DNA from: Deroplatys truncata
Taxonomy: Eukaryota; Arthropoda; Insecta; Mantodea; Mantidae
NCBI GenBank assembly: GCA_030765065.1
Contig: CM060990.1
Span: 670,498,118 to 670,562,117, forward strand
Reading direction: 5' to 3'
Length of the DNA stretch: 64,000 nt
The translations under genes were made by a program, and so were the position numbers. The notes beneath the pieces were generated by a model that did not search any database, was not told the DNA's origin, and saw only the letters and a program-made list of their open reading frames with translations. Of this stretch, positions 14,251-38,132 are shown piece after piece; position 1 is the first letter of the stretch; each line of letters opens with the position of its first letter.

Positions 14251-14332
14251 TGTGCCGCCAAATCGGCACACGTACCCCCGCAAAATGTGGACAGAAACTA
14301 TATTTGACAGTTTAAAAGGAAAAACTAAGTAA
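13838..14332 (+). pseudogene. Tc1 transposase, N-terminal half
   Basis: ATG at 13,838. MRRSVELTDFERGQVIGCHL and the paired helix-turn-helix region (VCEISTLLNIPRSTVSDVIVKWK; GRPRLLTDRDRRHLNRVVKSN; SIQAITQEFQ) are typical of the Tc1 DNA-binding domain. GFHCRAAAHKPHITQENAKRR is the usual link to the catalytic domain. After residue 130 or so the sequence leaves the family and the frame ends at 14,332, so the DDE catalytic domain is absent. Confidence 0.85.
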
Positions 14333-15289: not shown

Positions 15290-15293
15290 TAGA

Positions 15294-16152
15294 TGAGGCA
15301 GTATTTTTAACACTTAAATAATTTCAGTCTAATTATATAATATATAAATTCAATAACAGCCTGCCTTAAAGCAATATGTGTATGTAACAATATACAATAA
15401 ATGTATGTAACAGTCATTTTATATGTTTGTATTATTGTATCCATGTGTAATAATGTTATGTGAATATATTACGTAATTTAATAATGTAGGAGCTGTGAGA
15501 ATAATAGGTTAAAAGTTGCTAACAATGAGGTAACCTTGAGGCAATAATGAATTTGAAAGTTTAACTGCTACTAGTCATTATTGGAGCAACAGTAATGTAA
15601 ATTTTGAGACAGTTTAAAGATATCCAATCAACAACCAGAAAAAGCTTTAGTTAAAAATAGCCAATCAGAGACTTGAGATACAGAAATTTACAAGTTTAGG
15701 CGGTTGAAATCAGTTCAGTTGCCTGCAGACAGTGATTGTAACCGGATGCGAGTTGCGTCCTCGAGAGATTTAATACATATTCGTGTGAGACGAAAAATAA
15801 GTTCACGTGTTAAAAAGCGCAATTAATTAATTAAAGAATCTCACAGCTTTCTATATCAGTGAAGTGTTATTTAAATAGTGTCAAGCATTAATAAATGGAG
15901 TGAAAAAACTTAAAATCTGTGTAAGCCTCATTCTTGTCGCACCACAACCCTGCTAAGAGAAACGTGTCTCTAACAAATACTGACGCAGCCGAGGCAATCA
16001 TAAATATATAATATTTAAAGAAACAGTCAAATTACAAAGTAAATATTTTTAATCTTAGGGCCAAGGCTACTATACGTGCGGTTCCAACTACTACAAGTTC
16101 GTCTCCTCAACAGTTAAAATATAATACAACTCCTTCAATACGACCTACTTCA
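15294..16152 (+). mobile_element. Solo LTR, family A
   Basis: It starts TGAGGCAGTA and ends ACCTACTTCA. The 4-bp duplication taga lies directly outside (15,290-15,293 and 16,153-16,156). The same sequence occurs in inverted orientation at 17,145-18,161, which shows it is a mobile unit. 859 bp with no internal retroelement region, so it is a recombination remnant. Fossil of an LTR retroelement, probably Gypsy-type by the 4-bp duplication. Confidence 0.85.
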
Positions 16153-16156
16153 TAGA

Positions 16157-17034
16157 TTATGTATGCAAATATGAATACAAATCAGAGAAAACTAAAATGT
16201 AAGGAAAAGGCTTTATACGCAAAAATGTAAAGCTGAGAAAAACCACATACAGAAATGGTCCAGTGAGTTTAAAAACGAGCTCACTGGTGAGTTAAATATG
16301 TCGCTGGGTTTTTAAAAGTGGGCATCGTGAAAACGTTTGGCCAAAATGATTAACAGTTTATATAATATTTATGTTGCATTATTAGAAATCGAAAATGTTG
16401 TCATTTTCACCTAAAGCCTCAGTCCCAGTGTCCCTCAATAAGAATTAATGTTCATGAACATATTCATTACCATCAGTAACTTCTAATGCAGGAAGATCTG
16501 CTCTGAGGAATAATAATGGCAACTAATATTTTTGCAACATTTTTCTATGCTGAGAACTTGACTGTCAACATTGTAGCTTTGAACTTTTCATCATGCAGAT
16601 TGTTTGGTTGTTTGTAGACAAATGAGATATATTTGTAGATTGGTTTAAGTTTAAATAAACCTCATATTCGAAGTTCATTTTGCGGGAAGCCCACAGCCCA
16701 TTGAAACCCCTATGCGATTAGTGTGATATGGGAGCTAAATCCCTGTTGCCCCAATTAACCGCAAACTTCACTACCACTGCTGGGGTTTATTATTGAATTT
16801 GAATATTTTTCATCAAGCAGTGACACCACACCAACACAAAACAAACTAATTTACAGTGTCATGTGCAGAAGAATTTTTTCTGCATCAGTGTCCCTGATTC
16901 CTGTCTCTCCCGGTAGTAGCTCTTTGCTGGCCAAAAAGAATATTACTGGCATGAAGAGCAATGCAACAGAAACTGAAAACACCACATTCTGATTAACAGG
17001 GCTACAATAGATTTAGCCGAAAATAATAAAAATG
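16157..17034. other. Stretch without recognised gene
   Basis: Lies between two oppositely oriented copies of one LTR. No retroelement genes lie here, so the two LTRs are separate insertions rather than the ends of one element. Confidence 0.5.
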
Positions 17035-18263
17035 TACCAGATGGTGGTTTAGAACCAAACAGGTGTGGTATCGTGTGACGGGTTCAAACTCGGCGTAGGG
17101 CTATGGGTTTTTTCGGGCGTAAAAAGTTCTTAGCATGGCTTCCTTGAAGTAGTATGGTTTGTTGTATGAGTTGTATTGTAGTTTGCCCCTCCCTTTGGGA
17201 GCCAATTTGAAGTAGATAATATCTTTACGTTATTTGCACCACGCTTTGGGCGTCAATTTGAAGTAGGTTGTACTGAAGGAGTTGTATTATATTTCAACTG
17301 TTGGAGAGCCGAACTTAAAATTCGTTGCAACCACACGTATAGTACCCGCTTTCCGGTAGCCTTCGCCCCAAATGTACTTTCAGGTGGCCTTTGCCCCAAA
17401 TTTTAAAAAAATATTAACTTTGTAATTTGACTGTTTCTTTAAATACTATATTTATGTTTGCCTCGGCTGCGTCAGTATTATTGTTAGAGACACGTTTCTC
17501 TTAGCAGGGTTGTGATGCGACAAGAATGTAGGCTTACGCAGATTATAATTTTACTTCACTCTTTTTATTAATACTTGATACGATTTAAATAACACTTCAC
17601 TGATATAGAGATCTGTGAGATTCCTTTTATTAATTAATTACACTTTTTAACACGTAAATTTCTCGAGGACGCACAAGCAACGCATCCAGTTATGAGCACT
17701 GTCTGCAGGCAACTAAATTGATTTCAACCGTCTAAACTTGTAAATTTGTGTATTTCAAGTCTCTGATTGGCTATTCCTAATCCAATGGAATACCTTCATT
17801 TAACTAAAGCTTTTTCTGGTTGTTGATTGGGTATTTTATAAAATGTCACTAAAATGACATTATTGTTGCTCCAATAATGACTAGTAGCATTATTAAACTC
17901 TCAAACTCATTATTGCCTCAAGGTTACCTCATTTTTGGTAACGTTTAACTTATTATTCTCACAGCTCCTACATTCTTAAATTACGTAATACATTCACATA
18001 ACATTATTAAACATGCATACAATAATATAAACATTTACAATGACTGTAATATACACTCCTTCTATATTGTTACACACACATATTGCTTTAAGGCAGGCTG
18101 TTATTGAATTTATATGTTATATAATTTGACTGAAATCATTTAAGTGCAAAATACTGCCTCATCCTTCGGAAGGGAAGTAAAGCCGGTGGTCCCGTGTCGT
18201 AGGTAAAAGAACCTAAAGTCTGTTAAAGAGGCCTCTGAGCAAAATTTCCTGTAATTTTACGGT
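17035..18263 (+). mobile_element. SINE family A split by a solo LTR
   Basis: The SINE head and first body part (gggttcaaactcggcg; tttttcgggcgtaaaaag; tagcatggcttcct) end at 17,144. The rest (ccttcggaagggaagtaaag ... gaggcctctgagcaaaatt) resumes at 18,162. The tcct present once in other copies is doubled here. This gives a clear order of events: SINE first, LTR second. Confidence 0.85.
17145..18161 (-). mobile_element. Solo LTR, family A, long form inside a SINE
   Basis: TG...CA ends with a tcct duplication on both sides (17,141-17,144 and 18,162-18,165). It is the inverted partner of 15,294-16,152. Compared with that copy it carries an extra 114 bp at its sense 3' edge. There the boundary tgaagtag (complement of the LTR end) recurs at 17,145, 17,208 and 17,259, separated by primer-binding-site-like pieces such as tgacgcccaaagcgtgg (complement). 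No internal genes. Fossil. Confidence 0.85.
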
Positions 18264-21896: not shown

Positions 21897-21902
21897 TGAC
21901 CT
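21897..21902. repeat. Left 6-bp target duplication TGACCT
   Basis: Identical to 38,127-38,132. It lies directly outside the last paired base of the palindrome, as expected for a staggered integration. Confidence 0.85.
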
Positions 21903-21959
21903 AGTAGAAAATAAATGAGAGAACGGAAACACAAAGGATTTGCCGCCATCTGATAAGGT

Positions 21960-22340
21960 TCTTTGATCTATGCCGCTAGCCCCGCCCCCTCCCTTTGTGT
22001 TCTCACACGCCGGCCTGGTCGCGTGGCGCTAGCCCCGCCCCCTTCCCTTTGTGTGCTGATCTAATGCCGACAGTGTCTGTGCCGGCAGGTCCTCCCCCCT
22101 CCCCCCTGTGGTCTGGTCACGTGCCGGTGTCCCCGCCCCCCTCCCTCCCCCATACGCGTGTCCTCCCTCCCCTTTGTGTTCTGGTTGGTTCCCTGTGGAT
22201 AGGTGGGAGAGTGTGTATTGTTCCTATACGGTGACTACATTCCCGCCCCCTCATTGTGACTTGTCTAAATCCCTGCCGTGTGATTGGCTTGGGGTAGGGG
22301 ATGTGCCGCTCGGGTGATGGGGTATAAGGGAATGGGGTTC
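21960..22340. promoter_or_regulatory. GC-box-rich terminal segment, left
   Basis: A strong GC island in AT-rich surroundings. gctagccccgccccc occurs twice 54 bp apart (21,973 and 22,027), with further ccgccccc motifs at about 22,132 and 22,242. Each is an Sp1-type GC box on one strand. The segment sits within 60-440 bp of the element end, where viral and Polinton-type inverted repeats often carry replication or promoter signals. A regulatory role is inference. Confidence 0.45.
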
Positions 22341-22407
22341 TCGGTGCGTGACGTTGGCGATGTGGGAATGCGATTCTCAATGCCTGCCGCACATCGGCAA
22401 ATCGTTT

Positions 22408-22617
22408 GAGTACATAATTGTGTCAATCAATTAGGTAATGTGTGTTATTGAAAAAAGAATGCCCATCATATTACTACTAATGCAATTAAACGCGGTTCTT
22501 CGAGCAATTAATGAGTACATAATTGTGTCAATCAATTAGGTAATGCGTGTTATTGAAAAAAGAATGCCCATCATATTACTACTAATGCAATTAAACGCGG
22601 TTCTTCGAGCAATTAAG
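22408..22617. repeat. 105-bp direct duplication, left arm
   Basis: Two near-identical units start gagtacataattgtgtc at 22,408 and 22,513 and end in cgagcaatta. They differ at about one base, so the duplication is recent. Confidence 0.9.
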
Positions 22618-22619
22618 TA

Positions 22620-24700
22620 TTTTTGATTGAATTCGCGCGCACCTGGTCCTAAACCCCCCTTATATTACTACTATTGCAATGAAACGCGGCTAGTCGGTTG
22701 ATGAATACATTTAAGTATTTTTTGAATGATTAATTGACTCGCGCGCAACTGTTCGTTATCGTATATGTGTGGTAGCATGTGTATAATTATTACGAGTAAT
22801 AACATTTATTTAATTCTACTTTTGAGGGAAAATATATTTTGGATTTATAAGAATATTACAACACATAGATGAAAGGACAGACTTGACGTAACACTCGTTA
22901 TCGCGTGATAATTGCGGTGGAACACCGACCGCAACCTTCCACTGCGAGACGTTTCGCCGGAATGACTGGCTCCGATACTTCCACGGGCAAGTCAACTAGC
23001 GCATCCCCTCCACTTGCGTTTCAGTTCGCCAGCTACACTAGCGCACCAAGTGGTAATATGAGTGAAACTCCAGCGAGTGTTTGCTCACAGTGCCCCTGGC
23101 GGTCATATCCGAAAGTTGTGAATTCACCACATTTAAACTCATTATGGGTGCAAGACGGCCATCTTAACTCTATATAATTCTGCGAAATATGATTCCGGAA
23201 AAAATAAAGGGGAATTAACATGCAAGGGGCGTTCATGTCGGCTCCGGAGGAATTGATTATGAAATAAATAAAAAATAAATAAGACTCTCGCTGATCGATG
23301 AAAACAATGAATAATTAATGTAATTGACTCGCGCGCCTAGAGATATCTCACCCAATTATTCATCTACCATGAATATCTCACTTCTAATGAAACGGCGCAG
23401 TCTATCGATTAAAAACAATTAAGTTTTTTTTGATTGATTAATGTAATTGACTCGCGCGCAATTGTTCGTTATCGTATATGCGAGAATATTACGCGTATAT
23501 AACTATTACGGCTAATAACGTGTGTTTAATTCTTCTTTTGAATTGCGGGTTTATAAAAAATATTACATTGCTTAGATGAATTAAAAAGCAACTTAAAGCG
23601 AAATTGCAAATAGCTTGTATGAGACGTTAACACGAGAACCCTTTACGAAAAAACAAGACGCAATGTGACAGCAATGCCCCGTCCATCATGAGAGGCGGTT
23701 AAACCAGGACGCGTGGGTTTTCCCCACTACCTGCTCTTAATGGCTAGGGGTATCCAGCACATAGGAGTACGCTTCAACTGACGTTAAAAATAAAAGCCCT
23801 CTATGTCTCTTCTCACACGAGAGAAGTAATAATTACAATTCAAAACAGGCGTACCTGTAAGTAACACGCACGAAGACTTCAAATATAACTTTTATATTCG
23901 TTTTAAATGTTCTTTCTAAAGACGTAGCGAACTTTGAGAAATTCAACGAATTATTCACTGGCGTACACTGCCTGAAAGAAATATGGTGTACACCCCTGAA
24001 GAATGCATATGTAGACCCATTAGCAGACAAGGGCAAAACTCTTCCACACCATTAATTTTCGTCAGAAGAATGTAAAAACAAGGTCTTGTATAGAGCTCTT
24101 AGTGAACAATGACACCCGTTTTCCAGTTGATTAAACATCCAAAGTGCTCTGAAAAACCACAGACCCTCGGGGTAAATAACAATTACCGGCACAAAAGATT
24201 TTCTTAAGAGCTTCCTCTGTCCAGAAATTCCATCATACACAGCGGAAAAACCTGTCTAGACATGTTTTAAGCTTACCACAAAAAATGTTTTCCCGATAAT
24301 TAATATAATTCTACATGAAGAATATTAATGATTTAAGTTTTCAATTAAACGTATACTGTATAGATTCTGTACTTAAACATTCGATTGTATCTTTGTCATT
24401 ATTTAAATACTCGCGTACAAGAAATGCAAACATGATATCAAAAAATTAAACTGATTTTTTTCGGGATGTTAAACAAAGAAATATGATTTGGCGAGAGTAA
24501 TATGAAGAATAAAAAGTATTCAGAATGATATTACATACGTTATTAAAATAAGGCTCTCGCTGATCGATGAAAACAATTAAATATTTTTTTATTAATTAAT
24601 TGTATATGAATTGACTCGCGCATTTGCTTGCTGTCGTATGTGCATGATTATTACGACTAATAGCATTTGTTTAATTCTAAATAATGAAATATGGAGCCTT
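22620..24700. repeat. AT-rich subrepeats with gactcgcgcgc, left arm
   Basis: A degenerate module recurs around 22,730-22,830, 23,320-23,345, 23,440-23,540 and 24,545-24,680. It consists of tgatcgatgaaaacaatta/ataaaaaca, then attgactcgcgcgc, then cgttatcgtatatg, then attacgactaataacattt. The copies are spaced irregularly. The ORF at 22,905-23,177 lies between them and matches nothing I recognise. Mirror copies lie at about 35,330-37,410. Confidence 0.7.
23861..24055 (+). CDS. Possible exon-like open frame, left arm
   Basis: An open frame without its own ATG ends at TAA 24,053-24,055. The C-terminal part has an even, protein-like composition (FEKFNELFTGVHCLKEIW, then TPLKNAYVDPLADKG). An acceptor-like tctttctaaag precedes the best part. 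Function unknown. The mirror copy is at 35,974-36,168. Confidence 0.25.
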   Translation, partial: VTRTKTSNITFIFVLNVLSKDVANFEKFNELFTGVHCLKEIWCTPLKNAYVDPLADKGKTLPHH

Positions 24701-25109
24701 GCCTAAACAATCCTCGTTACTCTTAATTTATTCCATTTTTAAAAAGATTGGGCTTAGTAAACATAGGACGAGTACGATTTTAAATACCCCATCCATTCGA
24801 GAGATATTTTTCGAATATTCCAGCATGTTAATATAAACTTAATACACACACACGCACAAATTCATTTCAAGTAATCTAACGATATTGAATAAAATATTAA
24901 ATGTTTAAGATATTGTAATGAGAAATGAATTGTATATCTCGAATTTTCTGGGCCGCAGGCTGCAGGATCGCTCATCAAATACCGTAATGATTCAGACACC
25001 CGAACACCCGAATGGTAAGCATTCTTCAGAGTTTTTAAATAAGTAATGTAACAATTCATATTAACTTCTTGTTCATATTCTTTATTATTATTTGTATTAT
25101 TATTTCCAG

Positions 25110-25242
25110 GAAGTGGACTTTATTTTGGTATCGACCATCCATCGAGCGCTGCACAGGCAGCGCCAGGCTTCCAGACCTTTCCTGGTACCAAATCATCATG
25201 GAGGCGGCTCTACCATCCGTACATGCAGCAACACTCGTAAGG
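25110..25242 (+). CDS. Exon-like module A of the repeated-exon cluster, left arm
   Basis: A pyrimidine-rich tract and cag at 25,107-25,109 are followed by a segment opening SGLYFG and rich in Ala, Pro and Gln (AAQAAPGFQTF). A gt splice donor lies near 25,236-25,243. It shares its first residues and its PGFQTF and PYMQQ motifs with modules B and C, so these arose by exon duplication. Role unknown. Confidence 0.45.
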
Positions 25243-25556
25243 TGAGAATTTACAGACGGGTGTTTGAGGATTTTAACTAAAAAATTACATGATAGTAGAC
25301 ATACAATGTCGATTCTGGCACACAAAGGCATGCCTCCGACAGCATAGAGTTCTGGATTGTATAAGGAGAAAAGGATATATTTAAGGGGAGTTTCTCACCC
25401 ATATGCAGTCACATAACTCTTTCGGTCTCCCAGAATGCTATGTATTTTTCACGAGGGTGTTTAAAACATGTATTTTTTTTCACGTATAGAGTGTAGATTC
25501 TTTAGAACTCTGTACTTAAACATGCTATACTATTATTATTTATTTATTTTTTCCAG

Positions 25557-25745
25557 GAAATGGACTTTATTTCGGAGGCGGTATCGGTCAACATGCGACC
25601 GCTGCACCGGTAGCATCAGGCTTCGCGAGCGTTGTACCAGCAGGCTTCGCGACCGCTGCACCGCCACCTCCAGGCTTCCAGACCTTCCTGGCACCAAATC
25701 AGCAGGGTGGGGGCCCTGCCCCATACATGCAGCAAGCACCGAACG
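25557..25745 (+). CDS. Exon-like module B of the repeated-exon cluster, left arm
   Basis: Bounded by ttttttccag and g|gtaagaat, 189 bp, phase-1 at both edges. It encodes a Gly/Ala/Pro-rich piece with NGLYFGGGIG, repeated ASGFA/PAGFA units, PPPPGFQTF and PYMQQAPNG. Low-complexity, repetitive and probably extended. Phase-symmetric exons can be multiplied without breaking the frame. Mirror copy at 34,283-34,471. Confidence 0.5.
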
Positions 25746-25821
25746 GTAAGAATTTTTTCAATATTTTATGAAGTTCTTTTTACACATTCTATATTATTAT
25801 TAATATTGTTATTATTTTCAG

Positions 25822-25886
25822 GAAGTGGACTTTATTTCGGAGGCGGGTTTTTTCTGGGAATGTCTCCAAAGTATTCTTCATTCTGA
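25822..25886 (+). CDS. Terminal exon-like module C, left arm
   Basis: After ttattttcag the same SGLYFGGG opening is followed by a hydrophobic FFLGMSPKYSSF end and a stop at 25,884-25,886. It looks like the last exon of the cluster. Mirror copy at 34,142-34,206. Confidence 0.45.
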
Positions 25887-26500
25887 ACGACTTTTGCAAA
25901 ACTGATAAACCATAAGAGATAGACAAAATTTTACTACACAAAAAATGGAGATCGCGTTAAAATACATAATTTATAACATATACATTCTTGTTGTTGAGTA
26001 AATCGTTTTTCGAGATATTGCTTGTTATTCCCTTAAAATTTTCCAATACTTATACTTTTTCTCAAATTCATTATTCTTGTTTTATGTCCTCGATATGCAA
26101 AGAGAATGGAATGCACCACATAGCAACCAGCGTTAAAATATTTGACTATCGCTTAAAACCTATCATATTCACATTGTATCGTCATGAAAATTACCAATAA
26201 CATTGACATCTCGATATCTCGATTAACATGAAGCATATAGGGAATAAGTGCTTGTAAAAATAGTTTGTACAAGAGTAGAGAAAGCCATGTGAGTGTATCA
26301 CATCAGACTTTTTGATATTGGTTTAAATTTTCAAATACTTTTAACTTTTCTCAAGCGGTAACTCGCTATTCGTTTTTTCCCGCGGTAATGCATAGAGAAT
26401 AGAATTATAAAGCCATCACATAGCATCAGACGTTCTTTAAACATCTGTAACGTGTCTATTCACAATCGAAAGGTTGCTGGTTCGAGGAAAATTATATCTA
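25870..26500. repeat. Copy of the roughly 0.7 kb dispersed repeat inside the left arm
   Basis: Shares blocks with repeats outside the element: atagacaaaattttactacac, acataatttata, caaagccatcacatagc, and a tttctctac/gtagagaaag edge. Compare 46,060-46,330 and 63,690-64,000. The mirror copy is at about 33,530-34,160. Confidence 0.6.
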
Positions 26501-26816
26501 CAGAAACAATACATTATTTTCGCTCTGTGATTAATTTGGTAATGTAACAATAATTAACAATGAATTTTTAGCGGTAAATGTAAAAAATAAAATATATTTT
26601 TTATTTCCTAGCGTCATACGCAGAAGCATTCCCCTTAAGGAACGCTGGCGTGAGCGATGGTTTCCCCCATAACGGGTTTAGACTTGCTTACGAAATGTCC
26701 CTGTGCGAGGCTAGCATTTCCCTCTCCTTCTCGAATTTTTGGAGTAGCCAATCAAAATTGCTGTATTATATAACGTCACACCTCTCACCCCTTCAGATTT
26801 TTATCAGGCGAAGCGA

Positions 26817-26824
26817 TATAAAAG
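26817..26824 (+). promoter_or_regulatory. TATA box for the small inward-facing gene, left arm
   Basis: tataaaag, with an initiator-like tcactgt about 30 bp downstream and an ATG (26,922) followed at once by a splice donor. Classic spacing for RNA polymerase II. The mirror copy is at 33,204-33,211. Confidence 0.6.
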
Positions 26825-26921
26825 CAGTAGCTTCCCCAGCGATTTCACTGTATTGTGACAACACAGCGAGCTAAGATCTCCGCAAACTTTTCTCATTCAA
26901 AGTGAAATTTCAACGAACATC

Positions 26922-27921
26922 ATGTCTGGTAAGTTGTAACAAAACACTTCATTTACTTTAAAAGTTAAATTATTACTCTGTACATTTAACTTATATTCGC
27001 GTTCTTGTTTTTAATGCATGGCATTTATATGCGAATAGCTGAGCATTCTAAAAGTTAATAGCTAGACAAGTGAATTTTCTGAAATGTGAACAGTTTAGTT
27101 AAGTATTCATTTTAGGCAAGCTTATTCTACATTTAATAGCTAACTGCGCGAATTCTCAAAATGGGAACAATTTAGTTAAGTATTCACCTTGTTGAGTAAT
27201 TATTATTCCAGATATTTAAATACAGGATTTCACAGAGTGAATTATATTCCTTTTTGGAGAAAATACAATTATTTGAATACCTTATTAACGTTTTTGCTTT
27301 AGAATATTACAAAAAGTCTGTTGCGCGAATCATTCGCTCTAACAAAGTAAATATCTACATTATATTAAAACATTTAAATTGAAAAATACAGTACTTAATG
27401 AACTTCATTAGTGAATCAGAACCTCAATTATATTTACACATATTATCATTTTCAGAAAAAAGTTAATAAGTTTGTAACTTTCAAATAAATGAAATTTTTG
27501 TTATGCAACACATTCTCTAATAAAGAATATGTTTTTTTCTCTTCCTAATGCAGAAAGTTTGACATCTCAACTTAACACATTGGCTGAGGGTAGCATTTAC
27601 CCAGCCGTTCAAAGACTACAAGATCTTCAGCCAGAGGAGCCTTATAATATAAAATCCTTAAGAAAAATTGATACTCGATACGGTGCTAGAGTCGTTGCAC
27701 TTTTAGAGAATAAGCAAGTGTTTCTCCCGACAAGATATTCAACCCTAACAAGCCAACAGTTGGAGGAAATGCCTGGGAAGTTTCAAATGGTATATCATGG
27801 AGTAGTACCAGCCGGCAAGTTTAAGACATGTAAATTGTCTTTTCTTCCTATTAAGGTTTGTAGAAATAATTCAGCTATCCTTTCAAAGCTTCATTTAGAG
27901 TTACATTCGTTGAGTTTATAA
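26922..27921 (+). CDS. Small two-part gene with open frame of about 125 codons, left arm
   Basis: A very short first exon (ATG at 26,922, donor at 26,929) lies downstream of the TATA box. The main open part begins after ttcctaatgcag (27,554) and stops at 27,921. The main part reads like a compact globular protein: NTLAEGSIYPAVQRLQDL, then a charged KSLRKIDTRYGARVVALLEN with QVFLPTRYSTLT, and ends KLHLELHSL. The TKYG/RYGxxVVAxLEx...FLPxR pattern resembles small proteins common in arthropod genomes that may have an OB-fold, but that is recalled from motif shape only. It points toward the palindrome centre. Mirror copy at 32,107-33,106. Confidence 0.5.
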
Positions 27922-28568
27922 ATTCGCACTTCAGTAGGATAACATTTGTCTAAAGTATACATCAATATGTAAAAAAAATAACGTCCAGGATGTAGTCTGA
28001 GCGAGGATCTGCAGAAAGAAGTTTAATAGTCTATTCACTGATTCTTTACCTCAAAGCAGATACCTACAGTAAGTTTCAAATAATTTCCAGCACGATAGCA
28101 GTTGTCAAAGCAGGCATCACTGTATTAAAAAAATATGTGTAAATAATGTCTAGATTGTACTCTGTGTGATTTCGTGCAGAAAGAACTTTAATACCCCTTG
28201 CAGTGATTCTCCACATCGAAGTATATACCTACAAGAAGTTGCAAATAATGTGAATGTGTGTTACAGGAATGCCCAGCTGAATGTAAATGAAGAGGAAGAA
28301 CGAGATAGCTTAAAACATCATAAACAGAAATGTGATAGGAACATTCTCAACACCTCCCAGTAACCTCAATCAATGAAGAATTGCACCAGTGCGGAACATA
28401 CATGGAAAAAACATCCGCGTGTGTAGAATATAACAATAATACATATATATATATAATTATGTACTCATTATTACTGCTATACCAGCCTATACCATTGATT
28501 TCATAAATAATTTCATAATTGTTTAAGGAGAATACCTATCTTAAAAACATTGATGCTACATGAAATCT

Positions 28569-28865
28569 GTCGTCCTCCGTGGACTGGTGGTACCGTGCTA
28601 GCCTCTAGTTCCCAAGGTCGCGGGTTCAAACCCGGCGGAGGGCGATGGATTTTTTCGGGCGTAAAAATCGTTAGCACGGCTTCCTTCGGAAGGGAAGTAA
28701 AGCCGCTGGTCCCGTGTCGTAGATTTACGGCACGTAAAAGAACCTCAAGCCTGATAAAGAGGCCTCTGAGCAAAATTACAGGTGTTTCACGCCCAATATA
28801 GAATGGGACGCTAAGAACCATAGTAGTTAAAGAGCGTCCATAAATATAACTCAATTAAATTAAAT
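28569..28865 (+). mobile_element. SINE family A inside the left arm
   Basis: Full-length copy: head gtcgtcctccgtggactgg, intact B box gggttcaaaccc, tail aactcaattaaatt. Flanked by tacatgaaatct on both sides (28,557-28,568 and 28,866-28,877). Well kept, so a fairly recent insertion. Confidence 0.9.
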
Positions 28866-29285
28866 TACATGAAATCTAAACAAAAAGATTATTGAACTAT
28901 TACTGAAAGAGACTTGAATAAATGGGAATCTAGAAGCCTGAACCATCTTAATATTGGGCTGTATGATATGAGGTGTATAAAAAGATTAATAAAAAAATGA
29001 GGTCTATGTAATATAAACAACATTTATTTTTTATAAACATTTTCCTATTACATTCCTATACAAAAAAACATACATATTTCCTAAAGACAAAGGTGATAGT
29101 CTAGACATTCTAAAACACTCAGTTATATAATCATATACATCACACAGAAAGAGACCTGCATTATCCATAAAAAACTAAACATCTCAAGAATGTCTGGATG
29201 ATGTATTTTATAAGTACAAGGTTTTGATATTTCAAAGTTCCTGTTAACCATGACTGTAATTGATTAACACAATTTCTCGATCCTG

Positions 29286-29753
29286 TCATGCTATAACTTT
29301 AGAAGCTTTCAGCTTACTTATAATCTCCTCAATCTCTTGTGTGTGACTATTATTACCAGCATTCCTCGATGCAATTAGTAACCTTAATATATTTACTAGT
29401 CTATTTGGATTTTCAAGCGTAGATATCACTGAATCATCATCATATGAAGATTTCATATTCTCGCGACTCCCGCTGTATCCAGATTTTTCACCACCAGTAG
29501 TCTCCAGTGAAGGACAGAGGCTTGATCCGGTATAACATCCCCCTCTATACATCTTCGGATCTTCGAGTGTAGGAGAGAGAGTCGATCCAGTATAACATGT
29601 TGCTCTATGAAGCTTAAATCTTGACAAAGAACGATTCTTAAAAATCCGCTCGCATATACAGCATCTAATGACGTGTTTTCCTCCATGTGTAATGTATGAA
29701 AAATTGAGTTTCTCATCCGCTAGTTGCACAGATTTTCTCCGGCAGGAGCTCAT
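29286..29753 (-). CDS. 155-codon Cys/His-rich ORF, left arm
   Basis: Starts at ATG 29,753, with a basic N-terminus (MSSCRRKS). A possible zinc-binding cluster follows (RCCICERIFKNRSLSRFKLH with a later C; C-x2-C...H-x3-C-like). An internal duplication (CYTGSTLSPTLED and CYTGSSLCPSLET) and a C-terminal helix-forming EIEEIISKLKASK complete it. An aataaa on its strand near 29,030 lies about 260 bp past the stop. It points away from the palindrome centre, back to back with its twin. Family unknown. A DNA- or RNA-binding role is a guess from the Cys/His cluster. Confidence 0.55.
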   Translation of the reverse strand: MSSCRRKSVQLADEKLNFSYITHGGKHVIRCCICERIFKNRSLSRFKLHRATCYTGSTLSPTLEDPKMYRGGCYTGSSLCPSLETTGGEKSGYSGSRENMKSSYDDDSVISTLENPNRLVNILRLLIASRNAGNNSHTQEIEEIISKLKASKVIA

Positions 29754-29998
29754 GCTAAAACTAAAAGAAATTAAATGAATACGGGAATGCTAACGCTCGA
29801 AGGAATTAAAAGCGAATGAATGAATTCATAACACGCAGCTATGTATATATTCAGTGTGAGGACGCCGGAGGGAATCGCAATCTTCGCATAGCAGCGGGAA
29901 AGGATGCTCTCTGGAAACATTTGTGGAGAAGGAGGCTCTCAACAGAACATGGCGAATGCGAGCATGGAAAAAGGATGCTCTCTGGGAACATTCGTGGA

Positions 29999-30028
29999 AA
30001 AAGGATGCTCTCAACAGAACATAACGAG
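29999..30028. other. 30-base unpaired centre (loop) of the palindrome
   Basis: Pairing stops at 29,998/30,029. The 30 unpaired bases hold ggatgctctcaacagaac, itself a variant of short units in the neighbouring arm (ggatgctctctgg..., ggctctcaacagaacat). The turn-around point therefore lies inside a short local repeat. Such repeats can seed template switching or snap-back synthesis. Confidence 0.8.
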
Positions 30029-30273
30029 TCCACGAATGTTCCCAGAGAGCATCCTTTTTCCATGCTCGCATTCGCCATGTTCTGTTGAGAGCCTCCTTCT
30101 CCACAAATGTTTCCAGAGAGCATCCTTTCCCGCTGCTATGCGAAGATTGCGATTCCCTCCGGCGTCCTCACACTGAATATATACATAGCTGCGTGTTATG
30201 AATTCATTCATTCGCTTTTAATTCCTTCGAGCGTTAGCATTCCCGTATTCATTTAATTTCTTTTAGTTTTAGC

Positions 30274-30741
30274 ATGAGCTCCTGCCGGAGAAAATCTGTG
30301 CAACTAGCGGATGAGAAACTCAATTTTTCATACATTACACATGGAGGAAAACACGTCATTAGATGCTGTATATGCGAGCGGATTTTTAAGAATCGTTCTT
30401 TGTCAAGATTTAAGCTTCATAGAGCAACATGTTATACTGGATCGACTCTCTCTCCTACACTCGAAGATCCGAAGATGTATAGAGGGGGATGTTATACCGG
30501 ATCAAGCCTCTGTCCTTCACTGGAGACTACTGGTGGTGAAAAATCTGGATACAGCGGGAGTCGCGAGAATATGAAATCTTCATATGATGATGATTCAGTG
30601 ATATCTACGCTTGAAAATCCAAATAGACTAGTAAATATATTGAGGTTACTAATTGCATCGAGGAATGCTGGTAATAATAGTCACACACAAGAGATTGAGG
30701 AGATTATAAGTAAGCTGAAAGCTTCTAAAGTTATAGCATGA
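30274..30741 (+). CDS. 155-codon Cys/His-rich ORF, right arm
   Basis: Identical in translation to its left-arm twin. aataaa at 30,998-31,003 follows. The two starts are 521 bp apart and share the palindrome centre as a common upstream region, with a tatata motif near 30,178. The identical translation suggests very recent duplication, conversion or selection. Confidence 0.55.
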   Translation: MSSCRRKSVQLADEKLNFSYITHGGKHVIRCCICERIFKNRSLSRFKLHRATCYTGSTLSPTLEDPKMYRGGCYTGSSLCPSLETTGGEKSGYSGSRENMKSSYDDDSVISTLENPNRLVNILRLLIASRNAGNNSHTQEIEEIISKLKASKVIA

Positions 30742-31160
30742 CAGGATCGAGAAATTGTGTTAATCAATTACAGTCATGGTTAACAGGAACTTTGAAATAT
30801 CAAAACCTTGTACTTATAAAATACATCATCCAGACATTCTTGAGATGTTTAGTTTTTAAGGATAATGCAGGTCTCTTTCTGTGTGATGTATATGATTATA
30901 TAACTGAGTGTTTTAGAATGTCTAGACTATCACCTTTGTCTTTAGGAAATATGTATGTTTTTTTGTATAGGAATGTAATAGGAAAATGTTTATAAAAAAT
31001 AAATGTTGTTTATATTACATAGACCTCATTTTTTTATTAATCTTTTTATACACCTCATATCATACAGCCCAATATTAAGATGGTTCAGGCTTCTAGATTC
31101 CCATTTATTCAAGTCTCTTTCAGTAATAGTTCAATAATCTTTTTGTTTAGATTTCATGTA

Positions 31161-31457
31161 ATTTAATTTAATTGAGTTTTATTTATGGACGCTCTTTAAC
31201 TACTATGGTTCTTAGCGTCCCATTCTATATTGGGCGTGAAACACCTGTAATTTTGCTCAGAGGCCTCTTTATCAGGCTTGAGGTTCTTTTACGTGCCGTA
31301 AATCTACGACACGGGACCACCGGCTTTACTTCCCTTCCGAAGGAAGCCGTGCTAACGATTTTTACGCCCGAAAAAATCCATCGCCCTCCGCCGGGTTTGA
31401 ACCCGCGACCTTGGGAACTAGAGGCTAGCACGGTACCACCAGTCCACGGAGGACGAC
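31161..31457 (-). mobile_element. SINE family A inside the right arm
   Basis: Exact mirror counterpart with the same 12-bp flanks (31,149-31,160 and 31,458-31,469). Two independent insertions at the same base are not credible, so this copy was made when the palindrome formed. Confidence 0.9.
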
Positions 31458-32106
31458 AGATTTCATGTAGCATCAATGTTTTTAAGATAGGTATTCTCCT
31501 TAAACAATTATGAAATTATTTATGAAATCAATGGTATAGGCTGGTATAGCAGTAATAATGAGTACATAATTATATATATATATATGTATTATTGTTATAT
31601 TCTACACACGCGGATGTTTTTTCCATGTATGTTCCGCACTGGTGCAATTCTTCATTGATTGAGGTTACTGGGAGGTGTTGAGAATGTTCCTATCACATTT
31701 CTGTTTATGATGTTTTAAGCTATCTCGTTCTTCCTCTTCATTTACATTCAGCTGGGCATTCCTGTAACACACATTCACATTATTTGCAACTTCTTGTAGG
31801 TATATACTTCGATGTGGAGAATCACTGCAAGGGGTATTAAAGTTCTTTCTGCACGAAATCACACAGAGTACAATCTAGACATTATTTACACATATTTTTT
31901 TAATACAGTGATGCCTGCTTTGACAACTGCTATCGTGCTGGAAATTATTTGAAACTTACTGTAGGTATCTGCTTTGAGGTAAAGAATCAGTGAATAGACT
32001 ATTAAACTTCTTTCTGCAGATCCTCGCTCAGACTACATCCTGGACGTTATTTTTTTTACATATTGATGTATACTTTAGACAAATGTTATCCTACTGAAGT
32101 GCGAAT

Positions 32107-33106
32107 TTATAAACTCAACGAATGTAACTCTAAATGAAGCTTTGAAAGGATAGCTGAATTATTTCTACAAACCTTAATAGGAAGAAAAGACAATTTACAT
32201 GTCTTAAACTTGCCGGCTGGTACTACTCCATGATATACCATTTGAAACTTCCCAGGCATTTCCTCCAACTGTTGGCTTGTTAGGGTTGAATATCTTGTCG
32301 GGAGAAACACTTGCTTATTCTCTAAAAGTGCAACGACTCTAGCACCGTATCGAGTATCAATTTTTCTTAAGGATTTTATATTATAAGGCTCCTCTGGCTG
32401 AAGATCTTGTAGTCTTTGAACGGCTGGGTAAATGCTACCCTCAGCCAATGTGTTAAGTTGAGATGTCAAACTTTCTGCATTAGGAAGAGAAAAAAACATA
32501 TTCTTTATTAGAGAATGTGATGCATAACAAAAATTTCATTTATTTGAAAGTTACAAACTTATTAACTTTTTTCTGAAAATGATAATATGTGTAAATATAA
32601 TTGAGGTTCTGATTCACTAATGAAGTTCATTAAGTACTGTATTTTTCAATTTAAATGTTTTAATATAATGTAGATATTTACTTTGTTAGAGCGAATGATT
32701 CGCGCAACAGACTTTTTGTAATATTCTAAAGCAAAAACGTTAATAAGGTATTCAAATAATTGTATTTTCTCCAAAAAGGAATATAATTCACTCTGTGAAA
32801 TCCTGTATTTAAATATCTGGAATAATAATTACTCAACAAGGTGAATACTTAACTAAATTGTTCCCATTTTGAGAATTCGCGCAGTTAGCTATTAAATGTA
32901 GAATAAGCTTGCCTAAAATGAATACTTAACTAAACTGTTCACATTTCAGAAAATTCACTTGTCTAGCTATTAACTTTTAGAATGCTCAGCTATTCGCATA
33001 TAAATGCCATGCATTAAAAACAAGAACGCGAATATAAGTTAAATGTACAGAGTAATAATTTAACTTTTAAAGTAAATGAAGTGTTTTGTTACAACTTACC
33101 AGACAT
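32107..33106 (-). CDS. Small two-part gene, right arm
   Basis: Mirror copy of 26,922-27,921 with the same splice signals and coding potential. The TATA box lies at 33,204-33,211 on the minus strand. Confidence 0.5.
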
Positions 33107-33203
33107 GATGTTCGTTGAAATTTCACTTTGAATGAGAAAAGTTTGCGGAGATCTTAGCTCGCTGTGTTGTCACAATACAGTGAAATCGCTGGGGAAGCTA
33201 CTG

Positions 33204-33211
33204 CTTTTATA
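33204..33211 (-). promoter_or_regulatory. TATA box, right arm
   Basis: Mirror copy of 26,817-26,824, with the same downstream initiator-like sequence. Confidence 0.6.
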
Positions 33212-34141
33212 TCGCTTCGCCTGATAAAAATCTGAAGGGGTGAGAGGTGTGACGTTATATAATACAGCAATTTTGATTGGCTACTCCAAAAATTCGAGAA
33301 GGAGAGGGAAATGCTAGCCTCGCACAGGGACATTTCGTAAGCAAGTCTAAACCCGTTATGGGGGAAACCATCGCTCACGCCAGCGTTCCTTAAGGGGAAT
33401 GCTTCTGCGTATGACGCTAGGAAATAAAAAATATATTTTATTTTTTACATTTACCGCTAAAAATTCATTGTTAATTATTGTTACATTACCAAATTAATCA
33501 CAGAGCGAAAATAATGTATTGTTTCTGTAGATATAATTTTCCTCGAACCAGCAACCTTTCGATTGTGAATAGACACGTTACAGATGTTTAAAGAACGTCT
33601 GATGCTATGTGATGGCTTTATAATTCTATTCTCTATGCATTACCGCGGGAAAAAACGAATAGCGAGTTACCGCTTGAGAAAAGTTAAAAGTATTTGAAAA
33701 TTTAAACCAATATCAAAAAGTCTGATGTGATACACTCACATGGCTTTCTCTACTCTTGTACAAACTATTTTTACAAGCACTTATTCCCTATATGCTTCAT
33801 GTTAATCGAGATATCGAGATGTCAATGTTATTGGTAATTTTCATGACGATACAATGTGAATATGATAGGTTTTAAGCGATAGTCAAATATTTTAACGCTG
33901 GTTGCTATGTGGTGCATTCCATTCTCTTTGCATATCGAGGACATAAAACAAGAATAATGAATTTGAGAAAAAGTATAAGTATTGGAAAATTTTAAGGGAA
34001 TAACAAGCAATATCTCGAAAAACGATTTACTCAACAACAAGAATGTATATGTTATAAATTATGTATTTTAACGCGATCTCCATTTTTTGTGTAGTAAAAT
34101 TTTGTCTATCTCTTATGGTTTATCAGTTTTGCAAAAGTCGT

Positions 34142-34206
34142 TCAGAATGAAGAATACTTTGGAGACATTCCCAGAAAAAACCCGCCTCCGAAATAAAGTC
34201 CACTTC
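34142..34206 (-). CDS. Terminal exon-like module C, right arm
   Basis: Mirror copy of 25,822-25,886 with the same opening, stop and acceptor. Confidence 0.45.
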
Positions 34207-34282
34207 CTGAAAATAATAACAATATTAATAATAATATAGAATGTGTAAAAAGAACTTCATAAAATATTGAAAAAATTCTTAC

Positions 34283-34471
34283 CGTTCGGTGCTTGCTGCA
34301 TGTATGGGGCAGGGCCCCCACCCTGCTGATTTGGTGCCAGGAAGGTCTGGAAGCCTGGAGGTGGCGGTGCAGCGGTCGCGAAGCCTGCTGGTACAACGCT
34401 CGCGAAGCCTGATGCTACCGGTGCAGCGGTCGCATGTTGACCGATACCGCCTCCGAAATAAAGTCCATTTC
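34283..34471 (-). CDS. Exon-like module B, right arm
   Basis: Mirror copy of 25,557-25,745 with both splice signals kept. Confidence 0.5.
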
Positions 34472-34786
34472 CTGGAAAAAATAAATAAATAATAATAGTA
34501 TAGCATGTTTAAGTACAGAGTTCTAAAGAATCTACACTCTATACGTGAAAAAAAAATACACGTTTTAAACACCCTCGTGAAAAATACATAGCATTCTGGG
34601 AGACCGAAAGAGTTATGTGACTGCATATGGGTGAGAAACTCCCCTTAAATATATCCTTTTCTCCTTATACAATCCAGAACTCTATGCTGTCGGAGGCATG
34701 CCTTTGTGTGCCAGAATCGACATTGTATGTCTACTATCATGTAATTTTTTAGTTAAAATCCTCAAACACCCGTCTGTAAATTCTCA

Positions 34787-34919
34787 CCTTACGAGTGTTG
34801 CTGCATGTACGGATGGTAGAGCCGCCTCCATGATGATTTGGTACCAGGAAAGGTCTGGAAGCCTGGCGCTGCCTGTGCAGCGCTCGATGGATGGTCGATA
34901 CCAAAATAAAGTCCACTTC
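34787..34919 (-). CDS. Exon-like module A, right arm
   Basis: Mirror copy of 25,110-25,242 with the same edges. Confidence 0.45.
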
Positions 34920-37411
34920 CTGGAAATAATAATACAAATAATAATAAAGAATATGAACAAGAAGTTAATATGAATTGTTACATTACTTATTTAAAAACTC
35001 TGAAGAATGCTTACCATTCGGGTGTTCGGGTGTCTGAATCATTACGGTATTTGATGAGCGATCCTGCAGCCTGCGGCCCAGAAAATTCGAGATATACAAT
35101 TCATTTCTCATTACAATATCTTAAACATTTAATATTTTATTCAATATCGTTAGATTACTTGAAATGAATTTGTGCGTGTGTGTGTATTAAGTTTATATTA
35201 ACATGCTGGAATATTCGAAAAATATCTCTCGAATGGATGGGGTATTTAAAATCGTACTCGTCCTATGTTTACTAAGCCCAATCTTTTTAAAAATGGAATA
35301 AATTAAGAGTAACGAGGATTGTTTAGGCAAGGCTCCATATTTCATTATTTAGAATTAAACAAATGCTATTAGTCGTAATAATCATGCACATACGACAGCA
35401 AGCAAATGCGCGAGTCAATTCATATACAATTAATTAATAAAAAAATATTTAATTGTTTTCATCGATCAGCGAGAGCCTTATTTTAATAACGTATGTAATA
35501 TCATTCTGAATACTTTTTATTCTTCATATTACTCTCGCCAAATCATATTTCTTTGTTTAACATCCCGAAAAAAATCAGTTTAATTTTTTGATATCATGTT
35601 TGCATTTCTTGTACGCGAGTATTTAAATAATGACAAAGATACAATCGAATGTTTAAGTACAGAATCTATACAGTATACGTTTAATTGAAAACTTAAATCA
35701 TTAATATTCTTCATGTAGAATTATATTAATTATCGGGAAAACATTTTTTGTGGTAAGCTTAAAACATGTCTAGACAGGTTTTTCCGCTGTGTATGATGGA
35801 ATTTCTGGACAGAGGAAGCTCTTAAGAAAATCTTTTGTGCCGGTAATTGTTATTTACCCCGAGGGTCTGTGGTTTTTCAGAGCACTTTGGATGTTTAATC
35901 AACTGGAAAACGGGTGTCATTGTTCACTAAGAGCTCTATACAAGACCTTGTTTTTACATTCTTCTGACGAAAATTAATGGTGTGGAAGAGTTTTGCCCTT
36001 GTCTGCTAATGGGTCTACATATGCATTCTTCAGGGGTGTACACCATATTTCTTTCAGGCAGTGTACGCCAGTGAATAATTCGTTGAATTTCTCAAAGTTC
36101 GCTACGTCTTTAGAAAGAACATTTAAAACGAATATAAAAGTTATATTTGAAGTCTTCGTGCGTGTTACTTACAGGTACGCCTGTTTTGAATTGTAATTAT
36201 TACTTCTCTCGTGTGAGAAGAGACATAGAGGGCTTTTATTTTTAACGTCAGTTGAAGCGTACTCCTATGTGCTGGATACCCCTAGCCATTAAGAGCAGGT
36301 AGTGGGGAAAACCCACGCGTCCTGGTTTAACCGCCTCTCATGATGGACGGGGCATTGCTGTCACATTGCGTCTTGTTTTTTCGTAAAGGGTTCTCGTGTT
36401 AACGTCTCATACAAGCTATTTGCAATTTCGCTTTAAGTTGCTTTTTAATTCATCTAAGCAATGTAATATTTTTTATAAACCCGCAATTCAAAAGAAGAAT
36501 TAAACACACGTTATTAGCCGTAATAGTTATATACGCGTAATATTCTCGCATATACGATAACGAACAATTGCGCGCGAGTCAATTACATTAATCAATCAAA
36601 AAAAACTTAATTGTTTTTAATCGATAGACTGCGCCGTTTCATTAGAAGTGAGATATTCATGGTAGATGAATAATTGGGTGAGATATCTCTAGGCGCGCGA
36701 GTCAATTACATTAATTATTCATTGTTTTCATCGATCAGCGAGAGTCTTATTTATTTTTTATTTATTTCATAATCAATTCCTCCGGAGCCGACATGAACGC
36801 CCCTTGCATGTTAATTCCCCTTTATTTTTTCCGGAATCATATTTCGCAGAATTATATAGAGTTAAGATGGCCGTCTTGCACCCATAATGAGTTTAAATAT
36901 GGTGAATTCACAACTTTCGGATATGACCGCCAGGGGCACTGTGAGCAAACACTCGCTGGAGTTTCACTCATATTACCACTTGGTGCGCTAGTGTAGCTGG
37001 CGAACTGAAACGCAAGTGGAGGGGATGCGCTAGTTGACTTGCCCGTGGAAGTATCGGAGCCAGTCATTCCGGCGAAACGTCTCGCAGTGGAAGGTTGCGG
37101 TCGGTGTTCCACCGCAATTATCACGCGATAACGAGTGTTACGTCAAGTCTGTCCTTTCATCTATGTGTTGTAATATTCTTATAAATCCAAAATATATTTT
37201 CCCTCAAAAGTAGAATTAAATAAATGTTATTACTCGTAATAATTATACACATGCTACCACACATATACGATAACGAACAGTTGCGCGCGAGTCAATTAAT
37301 CATTCAAAAAATACTTAAATGTATTCATCAACCGACTAGCCGCGTTTCATTGCAATAGTAGTAATATAAGGGGGGTTTAGGACCAGGTGCGCGCGAATTC
37401 AATCAAAAATA

Positions 37412-37621
37412 CTTAATTGCTCGAAGAACCGCGTTTAATTGCATTAGTAGTAATATGATGGGCATTCTTTTTTCAATAACACGCATTACCTAATTGATTG
37501 ACACAATTATGTACTCATTAATTGCTCGAAGAACCGCGTTTAATTGCATTAGTAGTAATATGATGGGCATTCTTTTTTCAATAACACACATTACCTAATT
37601 GATTGACACAATTATGTACTC
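37412..37621. repeat. 105-bp direct duplication, right arm
   Basis: Inverted counterpart of the left-arm duplication. Its presence in both arms means it existed before the palindrome formed or was copied across by conversion. Confidence 0.9.
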
Positions 37622-37688
37622 AAACGATTTGCCGATGTGCGGCAGGCATTGAGAATCGCATTCCCACATCGCCAACGTCACGCACCGA

Positions 37689-38069
37689 GAACCCCATTCC
37701 CTTATACCCCATCACCCGAGCGGCACATCCCCTACCCCAAGCCAATCACACGGCAGGGATTTAGACAAGTCACAATGAGGGGGCGGGAATGTAGTCACCG
37801 TATAGGAACAATACACACTCTCCCACCTATCCACAGGGAACCAACCAGAACACAAAGGGGAGGGAGGACACGCGTATGGGGGAGGGAGGGGGGCGGGGAC
37901 ACCGGCACGTGACCAGACCACAGGGGGGAGGGGGGAGGACCTGCCGGCACAGACACTGTCGGCATTAGATCAGCACACAAAGGGAAGGGGGCGGGGCTAG
38001 CGCCACGCGACCAGGCCGGCGTGTGAGAACACAAAGGGAGGGGGCGGGGCTAGCGGCATAGATCAAAGA
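37689..38069. promoter_or_regulatory. GC-box-rich terminal segment, right
   Basis: Mirror copy of the left GC island, with gggggcggggctagc twice, 54 bp apart. Same interpretation. Confidence 0.45.
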
Positions 38070-38126
38070 ACCTTATCAGATGGCGGCAAATCCTTTGTGT
38101 TTCCGTTCTCTCATTTATTTTCTACT

Positions 38127-38132
38127 TGACCT
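38127..38132. repeat. Right 6-bp target duplication TGACCT
   Basis: Identical to 21,897-21,902, directly outside the last paired base. Confidence 0.85.

What the first reader, a model, noticed from the sequence alone, without database searches (positions are those of the whole stretch)
21903..38126. A 16.2 kb near-perfect palindrome that behaves as one mobile unit
Two 8.1 kb arms pair almost base for base around a 30-base loop. Both outer ends stop exactly at a TGACCT direct duplication. Normal transposons have far shorter inverted repeats, and giant palindromes are unstable, so a whole element that is nothing but inverted repeat is exceptional. It could be a new kind of large fold-back element or a palindromic derivative of a viral-type transposon.
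Basis: partly seen in the sequence, partly recalled or inferred. Interest (0 to 1): 0.95.

Follow-up and report, generated by a model that had tools for sequence, protein, structure and literature searches.

The report
Giant palindromic Maverick-derived mobile elements
This 16 kb stretch is one of several hundred copies of a jumping DNA element that is almost entirely its own mirror image, shares its ends with a virus-like transposon (a Maverick) in the same genome, and somehow keeps its two halves nearly identical as it spreads.

Summary
The palindrome is real: arms 21903-29998 and 30029-38126, 30-nt loop, perfect TGACCT duplication, arms differing at 7 substitutions and 3 indel sites. It is not a one-off. 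The window's own 4.29-Gb genome holds 839 hits to three states of one arm site; 192 of the 221 listed hits form 96 inverted pairs. Nine of nine fully fetched elements have perfect 6-bp target duplications and AGTAG ends. One (E2) is a Maverick with a 0.6-kb inverted repeat, rve integrase, packaging ATPase and double-jelly-roll capsid. I conclude a family of non-autonomous, palindromic Maverick satellites, presumably moved in trans. Sibling centres carry a 21-bp minisatellite; the loop here is best read as a deletion scar. Most striking: arms are near-identical within most elements but differ between elements. A SINE-like insert sits in both arms of 10 of 11 elements carrying it; those sampled otherwise differ in haplotype, yet each has one haplotype on both arms. 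Arms are thus repeatedly made alike, by hairpin replication (favoured) or later gene conversion (open). Six literature searches listed no palindromic Mavericks.

The parts
21897..21902 (+). left 6-bp target-site duplication TGACCT
   Evidence: sequence
21903..29998 (+). left arm of the palindrome
21903..22511 (+). outer ~0.6 kb shared with the terminal inverted repeat of the canonical Maverick E2 (98.2% to its left end over 610 columns, 96.8% to its right end over 591); begins AGTAGAAAATAAATGAGAGAACGG
22407..22616 (+). 105-bp tandem duplication (mirrored at 37413-37622)
25110..25886 (+). exon-like series of GSGLYFGG-type units bordered by AG/GT; one unit has matches (44-82% aa) in the left half of E2
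26817..26824 (+). TATA-box-like TATAAAAG upstream of the split gene
   Evidence: motif recalled
26922..26928 (+). putative exon 1 (ATGTCTG, then GTAAGT) of the split gene
27554..27855 (+). putative exon 2 of the split gene; no Pfam or PHROGs match, no convincing PDB match, no tblastn match in E2
28557..28877 (+). SINE-like insert (about 28569-28865) with its own target duplication TACATGAAATCT on both sides; mirrored in the right arm
29286..29753 (-). 155-aa cysteine-rich ORF; its C-terminus (residues 115-155) is 83% identical to an ORF next to the integrase ORF of Maverick E2
29890..29998 (+). 71-bp repeats that border the centre
29999..30028 (.). 30-nt loop; best read as a deletion scar where five sibling copies carry a 21-bp minisatellite
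30029..38126 (-). right arm of the palindrome
30274..30741 (+). right-arm copy of the 155-aa ORF, same protein
31149..31468 (-). right-arm copy of the SINE-like insert with its duplication
38127..38132 (+). right 6-bp target-site duplication TGACCT
   Evidence: sequence

Best explanation
The palindrome is one copy of a family of non-autonomous giant palindromic elements, several hundred copies strong, derived from a Maverick (Polinton). Each is two inverted arms (about 8 kb in the window type) built from the left end of a Maverick plus a few split genes, joined by a minisatellite spacer in the copies whose centre was read. SHOWN: the family, its ends, its 6-bp target duplications, its kinship with a capsid- and integrase-bearing Maverick in the same genome, and the fact that in most elements examined both arms carry the same haplotype while different elements are mosaics of one another. 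INFERRED: (1) Maverick integrase inserts it in trans; (2) a Maverick polymerase copies it from its identical ends by protein priming; (3) the displaced strand folds into a hairpin across the spacer, and either snap-back copying of one arm or repair of the self-paired arms makes them identical before insertion; (4) in the window copy the spacer was lost by a deletion with 1-nt microhomology, leaving the 30-nt loop. The confidence is for the family, its derivation and movement in trans; for step 3 alone I would say about 0.5.
For: Family: 28 of 40 scored terminal hits form 14 inverted pairs 16-26 kb apart, the window among them; 12 hits are unpaired. Of the 14, 12 are palindromic and 2 (E2, E10) are not; five (E9-E13) were judged from 1-kb samples per side only. 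Three states of one arm site give 603, 215 and 21 hits, control 0 each. Ends and target duplications: 9 of 9 fully fetched elements. Kinship: E2 shares the 0.6-kb ends and much of the left arm, and encodes rve integrase (2.9e-9), A32-type ATPase (1.5e-7) and DJR capsid (3e-110). Concerted arms: in a tree of 7 of the 12 palindromic elements, 6 of 7 have their two arms as sisters, support 1.000; 94 of 96 listed pairs are concordant at the allele site; in 13 elements the arms differ at 0-3 of about 900 sites (S1 over 119 sites only) although SINE-sharing elements differ from each other at 13-123 (S1 and the one-arm carrier left out). L/R differences are private in WIN 7/7, E1 9/9, E3 13/13, E7 13/14, E8 10/12. 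Canonical E2 keeps 22 differences between its own 600-bp ends. Centre.
Against: No step of mobilisation or replication was observed. E2 shows no polymerase in the 38 of 88 listed ORFs that were scanned, so the polymerase would have to come from other Mavericks (PF03175 gives 152 matched stretches, several per gene, from 76 scored candidates). Homogenisation is incomplete: E4 carries a ~1-kb tract that differs between its arms and has 21 differences between its outer 600-bp ends, as many as canonical E2; one element has the SINE in one arm only and another mixes two alleles; E9's 1-kb sample matches at only 94.3%; E6's arms differ by 9.6 per 1000 and E5's match at about 99.0%. Such patches also fit gene conversion after insertion. 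The pair lists are cut at 100 and hold exact matches first, so concordance is an upper figure. In 1-kb windows the own partner was strictly nearest in 84 of 112, tied in 11 and not nearest in 17.
Confidence: 0.72

Rival explanations
1. Same family, but the arms are kept alike after insertion by gene conversion between them in the chromosome, as in sex-chromosome palindromes; replication adds nothing.
For: Tract-like exceptions: E4's ~1-kb tract in one arm, one element with the SINE in one arm only and one with mixed alleles look like conversion in progress. A spacer of a few kb between long arms suits intrachromosomal conversion.
Against: Single-arm differences are mostly private outside E4, as expected if arms were identical at insertion and then drifted. 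The L/R divergence is similar (0.9-1.8 per 1000) in 5 of 7 elements although window-type elements differ from each other by 6.6-24 per 1000. Neither point excludes conversion.
Confidence: 0.35
2. The arms are alike only by descent: one master element with identical arms was amplified recently, with no homogenisation.
For: The SINE and the 23-bp deletion could each have been doubled once and then copied.
Against: Arms group by element, not by side, in 6 of 7 elements with full support. Elements sharing the SINE have different outer-arm haplotypes, each the same on both sides to within 0-2 sites. That needs repeated homogenisation.
Confidence: 0.04
3. Each palindrome is an independent defective by-product of Maverick replication (a snap-back genome) that was inserted once, not a lineage of its own.
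For: Inverted duplication of one genome end is the form of some defective genomes of protein-primed viruses (adenovirus; recalled; Daniell 1976 was seen only as a reference in PMC12090768).
Against: The five centres read (E1, E3, E4, E7, E8) share the 21-bp array and 71-bp repeats beside it. The window and those five share a segment order that differs from E2's, while E5 has E2's order. The split-gene exon has no tblastn match in E2. Hundreds of hits share one arm site. It may still be how the first one arose.
Confidence: 0.05
4. Assembly or library artefact (missed adapter or amplification palindrome).
For: Such artefacts make palindromes in long reads (PMC6218980, listing and start of abstract).
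Against: The palindrome stops exactly at a direct 6-bp duplication with different flanks; equivalent loci with different flanks and different spacer lengths recur on chromosome-size contigs.
Confidence: 0.01
5. A cut-and-paste fold-back element unrelated to Mavericks that happens to have 6-bp duplications.
For: No Maverick core gene among the 65 arm ORFs scanned.
Against: Outer 0.6 kb and several kb of arm are shared with a capsid- and integrase-bearing Maverick; in the outer 600 bp E2's left end is 2 substitutions from palindromic E1.
Confidence: 0.04

Closest known systems
Maverick/Polinton (polintovirus) elements
   Same: 6-bp target duplications, AG-starting ends close to the (AGT)2 motif reported for vertebrate Mavericks (PMC8097293, passages read), shared ends and left part with a local Maverick that has integrase, ATPase and capsid genes.
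   Different: No core gene found on the arm; inverted repeats make up nearly the whole element, against 46-1,447 bp in intact vertebrate Mavericks (PMC8097293 passages); putative split genes, against intronless ORFs there; central minisatellite.
Fold-back transposons (FB, Galileo, Tetris)
   Same: Element consisting mostly of inverted repeats; Tetris is called a foldback transposon that provided building blocks of a satellite (PMC4079207, listing and start of abstract only).
   Different: Far longer arms, 6-bp duplication, Maverick kinship; FB-type elements are recalled as P-like with longer duplications.
Adenovirus defective genomes with inverted duplication of the left end
   Same: Inverted duplication of one end of a protein-primed linear genome (recalled; only a reference line was seen).
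   Different: Here inserted into chromosomes, multi-copy and with a shared type of centre.
Teratorn
   Different: Herpesvirus plus piggyBac; not described there as a full palindrome.
Sex-chromosome palindromes kept alike by gene conversion
   Same: Arms evolve in concert (PMC7023750, listing and start of abstract only).
   Different: Not mobile; here in several hundred copies.

Membership tests
Maverick/Polinton | 6-bp target-site duplication | tested here: met
   9 of 9 fully fetched elements including the window
Maverick/Polinton | ends beginning AG and ending CT | tested here: met
   AGTAG...CTACT at all 18 ends of the 9 fully fetched elements
Maverick/Polinton | exact (AGT)2 or (AG)3 end motif of vertebrate Mavericks | tested here: not met
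   AGTAGA in the window, 5 of 6 to AGTAGT
Maverick/Polinton | core genes on the element (integrase, PolB, ATPase, capsid) | tested here: not met
   Pfam scan of 65 of 66 listed arm ORFs of 45 aa or more finds none; E2 has integrase, ATPase, capsid, but no PolB in the 38 of 88 listed ORFs scanned
Maverick/Polinton | protein-primed self-replication | not testable with these tools
   needs extrachromosomal DNA
Non-autonomous derivative of a Maverick | same ends and sequence as a Maverick with core genes in the genome | tested here: met
   E2 left end 98.2% over 610 columns and further left-arm stretches at 87-95%
Non-autonomous derivative of a Maverick | mobilised in trans by Maverick proteins | not testable with these tools
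   inferred from ends and duplications
Fold-back transposon | inverted repeats make up most of the element | tested here: met
   16,194 of 16,224 bp in the window
Fold-back transposon | FB/Galileo type transposase or longer target duplication (recalled) | tested here: not met
   6-bp duplications; no transposase among the arm ORFs scanned

The most novel reading that the evidence does not exclude
A mobile element that reproduces from a single arm: each new copy is made by copying one arm, folded back across the minisatellite hinge, into both halves, so that the arms play the part that LTRs play in retrotransposons (identical at birth, diverging afterwards), while recombination between elements happens at the single-arm stage. 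It would be a virus-derived satellite with a hairpin replication cycle of its own.
Probability: 0.4. Interest if true: 0.9.

Novelty: new variant of a known kind. Interest (0 to 1): 0.82.

Why it matters
Long near-perfect palindromes are expected to be unstable, yet this genome carries several hundred mobile ones, some with no differences between arms in the 1-kb samples read (E12, E13), so they look recent. They are a natural system for asking how animal cells tolerate 16-kb palindromes, how virus-like transposons spawn satellites, and how the halves of a palindrome are made alike. Arm-to-arm divergence could date insertions the way LTRs do, if the arms are identical at birth. The many copies and the few discordant elements make the question of homogenisation at birth or afterwards directly testable with population long reads.

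Tried and rejected
Core-gene search on the arm: 65 ORFs against Pfam gave only five weak hits, E 0.0047-0.069, none a Maverick core gene; 8 chosen ORFs likewise; PHROGs none for 2 proteins; PDB by sequence nothing convincing for the split-gene exon or the 155-aa ORF. Relatives in viral contigs: none for either protein. Capsid of E2 against phage records: none. The 564-aa ORF of E2 against PDB: none. Rfam on the window at gathering thresholds: none. Structure prediction was never accepted, so neither arm protein has a fold. I first took the centre for the fold-back junction itself; comparison with sibling centres pointed to a deletion scar (E1 lacks the left breakpoint sequence). The arm differences lie somewhat towards the centre (p about 0.02 on 8 events); not explained. 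Rows left out: the arm tree used 7 of the 12 palindromic elements; E5 (rearranged arms) was left out and E9, E11, E12, E13 were only sampled. E6 was left out of the 249-site count, and E6's own 69 arm differences were 40 private and 29 seen in no other arm. A count of the second end variant was not obtained.
Full report
OBSERVATION. One inverted self-match spans exactly 21903-38126. The arms pair base for base except at 7 substitutions and 3 indel sites, around a 30-nt loop at 29999-30028. TGACCT flanks both ends in direct orientation and the inverted match ends there, the mark of an inserted unit rather than of a chromosomal inverted duplication.

ANATOMY OF AN ARM. From the end inward: a GC-rich outer part with a 105-bp tandem duplication; a series of exon-like GSGLYFGG units; a TATA-like box, an ATG and a putative two-exon gene start; a SINE-like insert with its own 12-bp duplication (the name rests on a B-box-like sequence, recalled, and on dispersed copies in the window); a 155-aa cysteine-rich ORF; then 71-bp repeats at the centre. 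Pfam finds no Maverick core gene among 65 of the 66 listed arm ORFs of 45 aa or more.

A FAMILY. The window's own genome (4.29 Gb) was searched with the first 498 bp of the arm: 40 scored hits (of 2,614 loose candidates), 28 of them in 14 inverted pairs 16-26 kb apart, 12 unpaired. Eight of the other pairs were fetched in long stretches and five sampled by 1 kb per side. With the window, 12 of 14 are palindromic and 2 are not. In the nine fully fetched elements the 6-bp target duplication is perfect in nine. A site inside the arm exists in three states: intact (603 hits), with a 23-bp deletion (215) and with the SINE (21), with no hits for the reversed control pattern; at two arms per element this suggests about 420 elements. 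Of 221 listed hits, 192 form 96 inverted pairs and 29 are unpaired; two of the three lists are cut at 100 rows. Search with the 155-aa ORF region returned 40 scored hits of 1,441 candidates, all listed as 100% identical after rounding, 30 of which I count in 15 inverted pairs.

KINSHIP WITH MAVERICKS. Element E2 is 20.2 kb with a 0.6-kb terminal inverted repeat (96.2% between its ends) and left-hand sequence shared with the palindromic arm. Its right half encodes an rve integrase, an A32-type ATPase, a PX/phospholipase-type protein and a double-jelly-roll capsid. No polymerase was found in the 38 of 88 listed E2 ORFs scanned, although polymerase matches abound elsewhere in the genome (152 matched stretches, several per gene). 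A 41-bp capsid pattern from E2 has 766 hits at up to 2 mismatches, and a 1-kb stretch of E10 is 100% identical to E2, so this Maverick probably spread recently. E2's left end differs from palindromic E1 at 2 of about 600 sites. E5 is palindromic but keeps the segment order of E2, while the window, E1, E3, E4, E7 and E8 have two segments in the other order; I read E5 as nearer the ancestral form (inference). Published passages give 6-bp duplications, an (AGT)2 end motif and repeats of 46-1,447 bp for intact vertebrate Mavericks (PMC8097293) and link rve integrase with 6-bp duplications in polinton-like viruses (PMC12220804).

THE CENTRE. Five sibling centres (E1, E3, E4, E7, E8) hold a 21-bp minisatellite (about 50 to 160 units) with 71-bp repeats beside it. 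The window centre joins two points that lie 2,695 bp apart in E3, with one shared base; both points are also present in E4, E7 and E8, the left one is missing in E1. So the 30-nt loop is best read as a deletion scar.

CONCERTED ARMS. Over about 7.6 kb, the two arms of WIN, E1, E3, E7 and E8 differ by 0.9-1.8 per 1000, E6 by 9.6 and E4 by 10.8; window-type elements differ from each other by 6.6-24, E6 from the rest by 51-63. E5 was not in that set; its arms match at about 99.0%. In the 1-kb samples E11, E12 and E13 match at 99.8, 100 and 100%, E9 at 94.3%. Six of seven elements have their own arms as sisters with support 1.000; E4 does not. E4's excess lies in one ~1-kb tract, 70 of 82 differences. 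Single-arm differences are private in WIN 7/7, E1 9/9, E3 13/13, E7 13/14 and E8 10/12; in E4 47 of 82 are shared with other elements. At 249 sites informative between elements (E6 left out) the arms agree in 1,445 of 1,494 cells. The SINE is in both arms of 10 of 11 elements that carry it; the eleventh pairs with an intact site. Besides the window, seven of those 11 were sampled in the outer arm, six with the SINE in both arms plus the discordant one: their two arms differ at 0-2 sites. The window and the six differ from one another at 13-123 of about 900 sites once S1, which aligned over only 119-129 sites, is left out; the discordant element differs from the other SINE carriers by 59-158 and is nearest to E7 (16). 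Elements are therefore mosaics, and each sampled mosaic is present on both arms. In 1-kb windows the own partner is strictly nearest in 84 of 112, tied in 11, not nearest in 17; 7 of the 17 are E4 arms. At C1-C7 90 of 92 listed pairs are concordant in allele, against 40.3 expected if arms were independent; since the lists favour exact matches and are cut, this is an upper figure.

HOW IT MOST LIKELY WORKS. Shown: insertion units with Maverick-type duplications and ends; repeated homogenisation of the two arms. Inferred: insertion by Maverick integrase in trans; copying from the identical ends by protein priming; and a hairpin stage, because a displaced strand of such an element can fold on itself through the spacer. 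Copying back along one arm, or repair of the self-paired arms, would make both halves identical, carry a SINE from one arm to the other and preserve mosaics. The main rival, conversion between arms after insertion, is not excluded; the discordant elements fit both. That canonical E2 keeps 22 differences between its own 600-bp ends argues against a general homogenisation of Maverick ends, though palindromic E4 shows 21 there too.

NOVELTY. Fold-back elements and Mavericks are known. Searches pairing Polinton or Maverick with palindrome, foldback, inverted duplication, nonautonomous or hairpin, and two on linear protein-primed replicons and fold-back elements, listed nothing about palindromic Mavericks, judged from titles and abstract starts of the rows shown (15 of 337 and 12 of 161 papers); subscription papers are largely outside that library.

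Noticed in passing
window 15292-18163: A second, older inverted-repeat structure (about 0.75-kb arms, 85-90% alike, 1.4 kb apart).
   Followed up: no
window 6859-7993: Minisatellite with a ~75-bp unit, about 15 copies (from the self-match spacing).
   Followed up: no
window 9679-10347, 13829-14332, 54152-54616: Transposase-type fragments (Pfam DUF4817, HTH_Tnp_Tc3_2 and Transposase_1 respectively).
   Followed up: partly
L011-L013 (Maverick E2): Capsid-, ATPase- and integrase-bearing Maverick in which no polymerase was found among the ORFs scanned, although its capsid pattern has 766 hits in the genome.
   Followed up: partly
L025/L026 (E8) ends: The outermost ~20 bp differ (AGTAGAAATGTTATGCCGAT on the left) from the window type while the rest of the arm is alike; the window-type 35-bp end has only 20 hits genome-wide at up to 2 mismatches.
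   Followed up: partly
L016 (E4, left arm): A ~1-kb tract in one arm only; the outer 600 bp of that arm are nearest to the right end of Maverick E2 (12 differences), which suggests exchange between palindromic and canonical elements.
   Followed up: partly
L029/L030 (E10) against E2: Right-hand samples 100% identical over 1 kb while the left-hand sample matches at 87-96%: canonical Mavericks here may also be mosaic.
   Followed up: no
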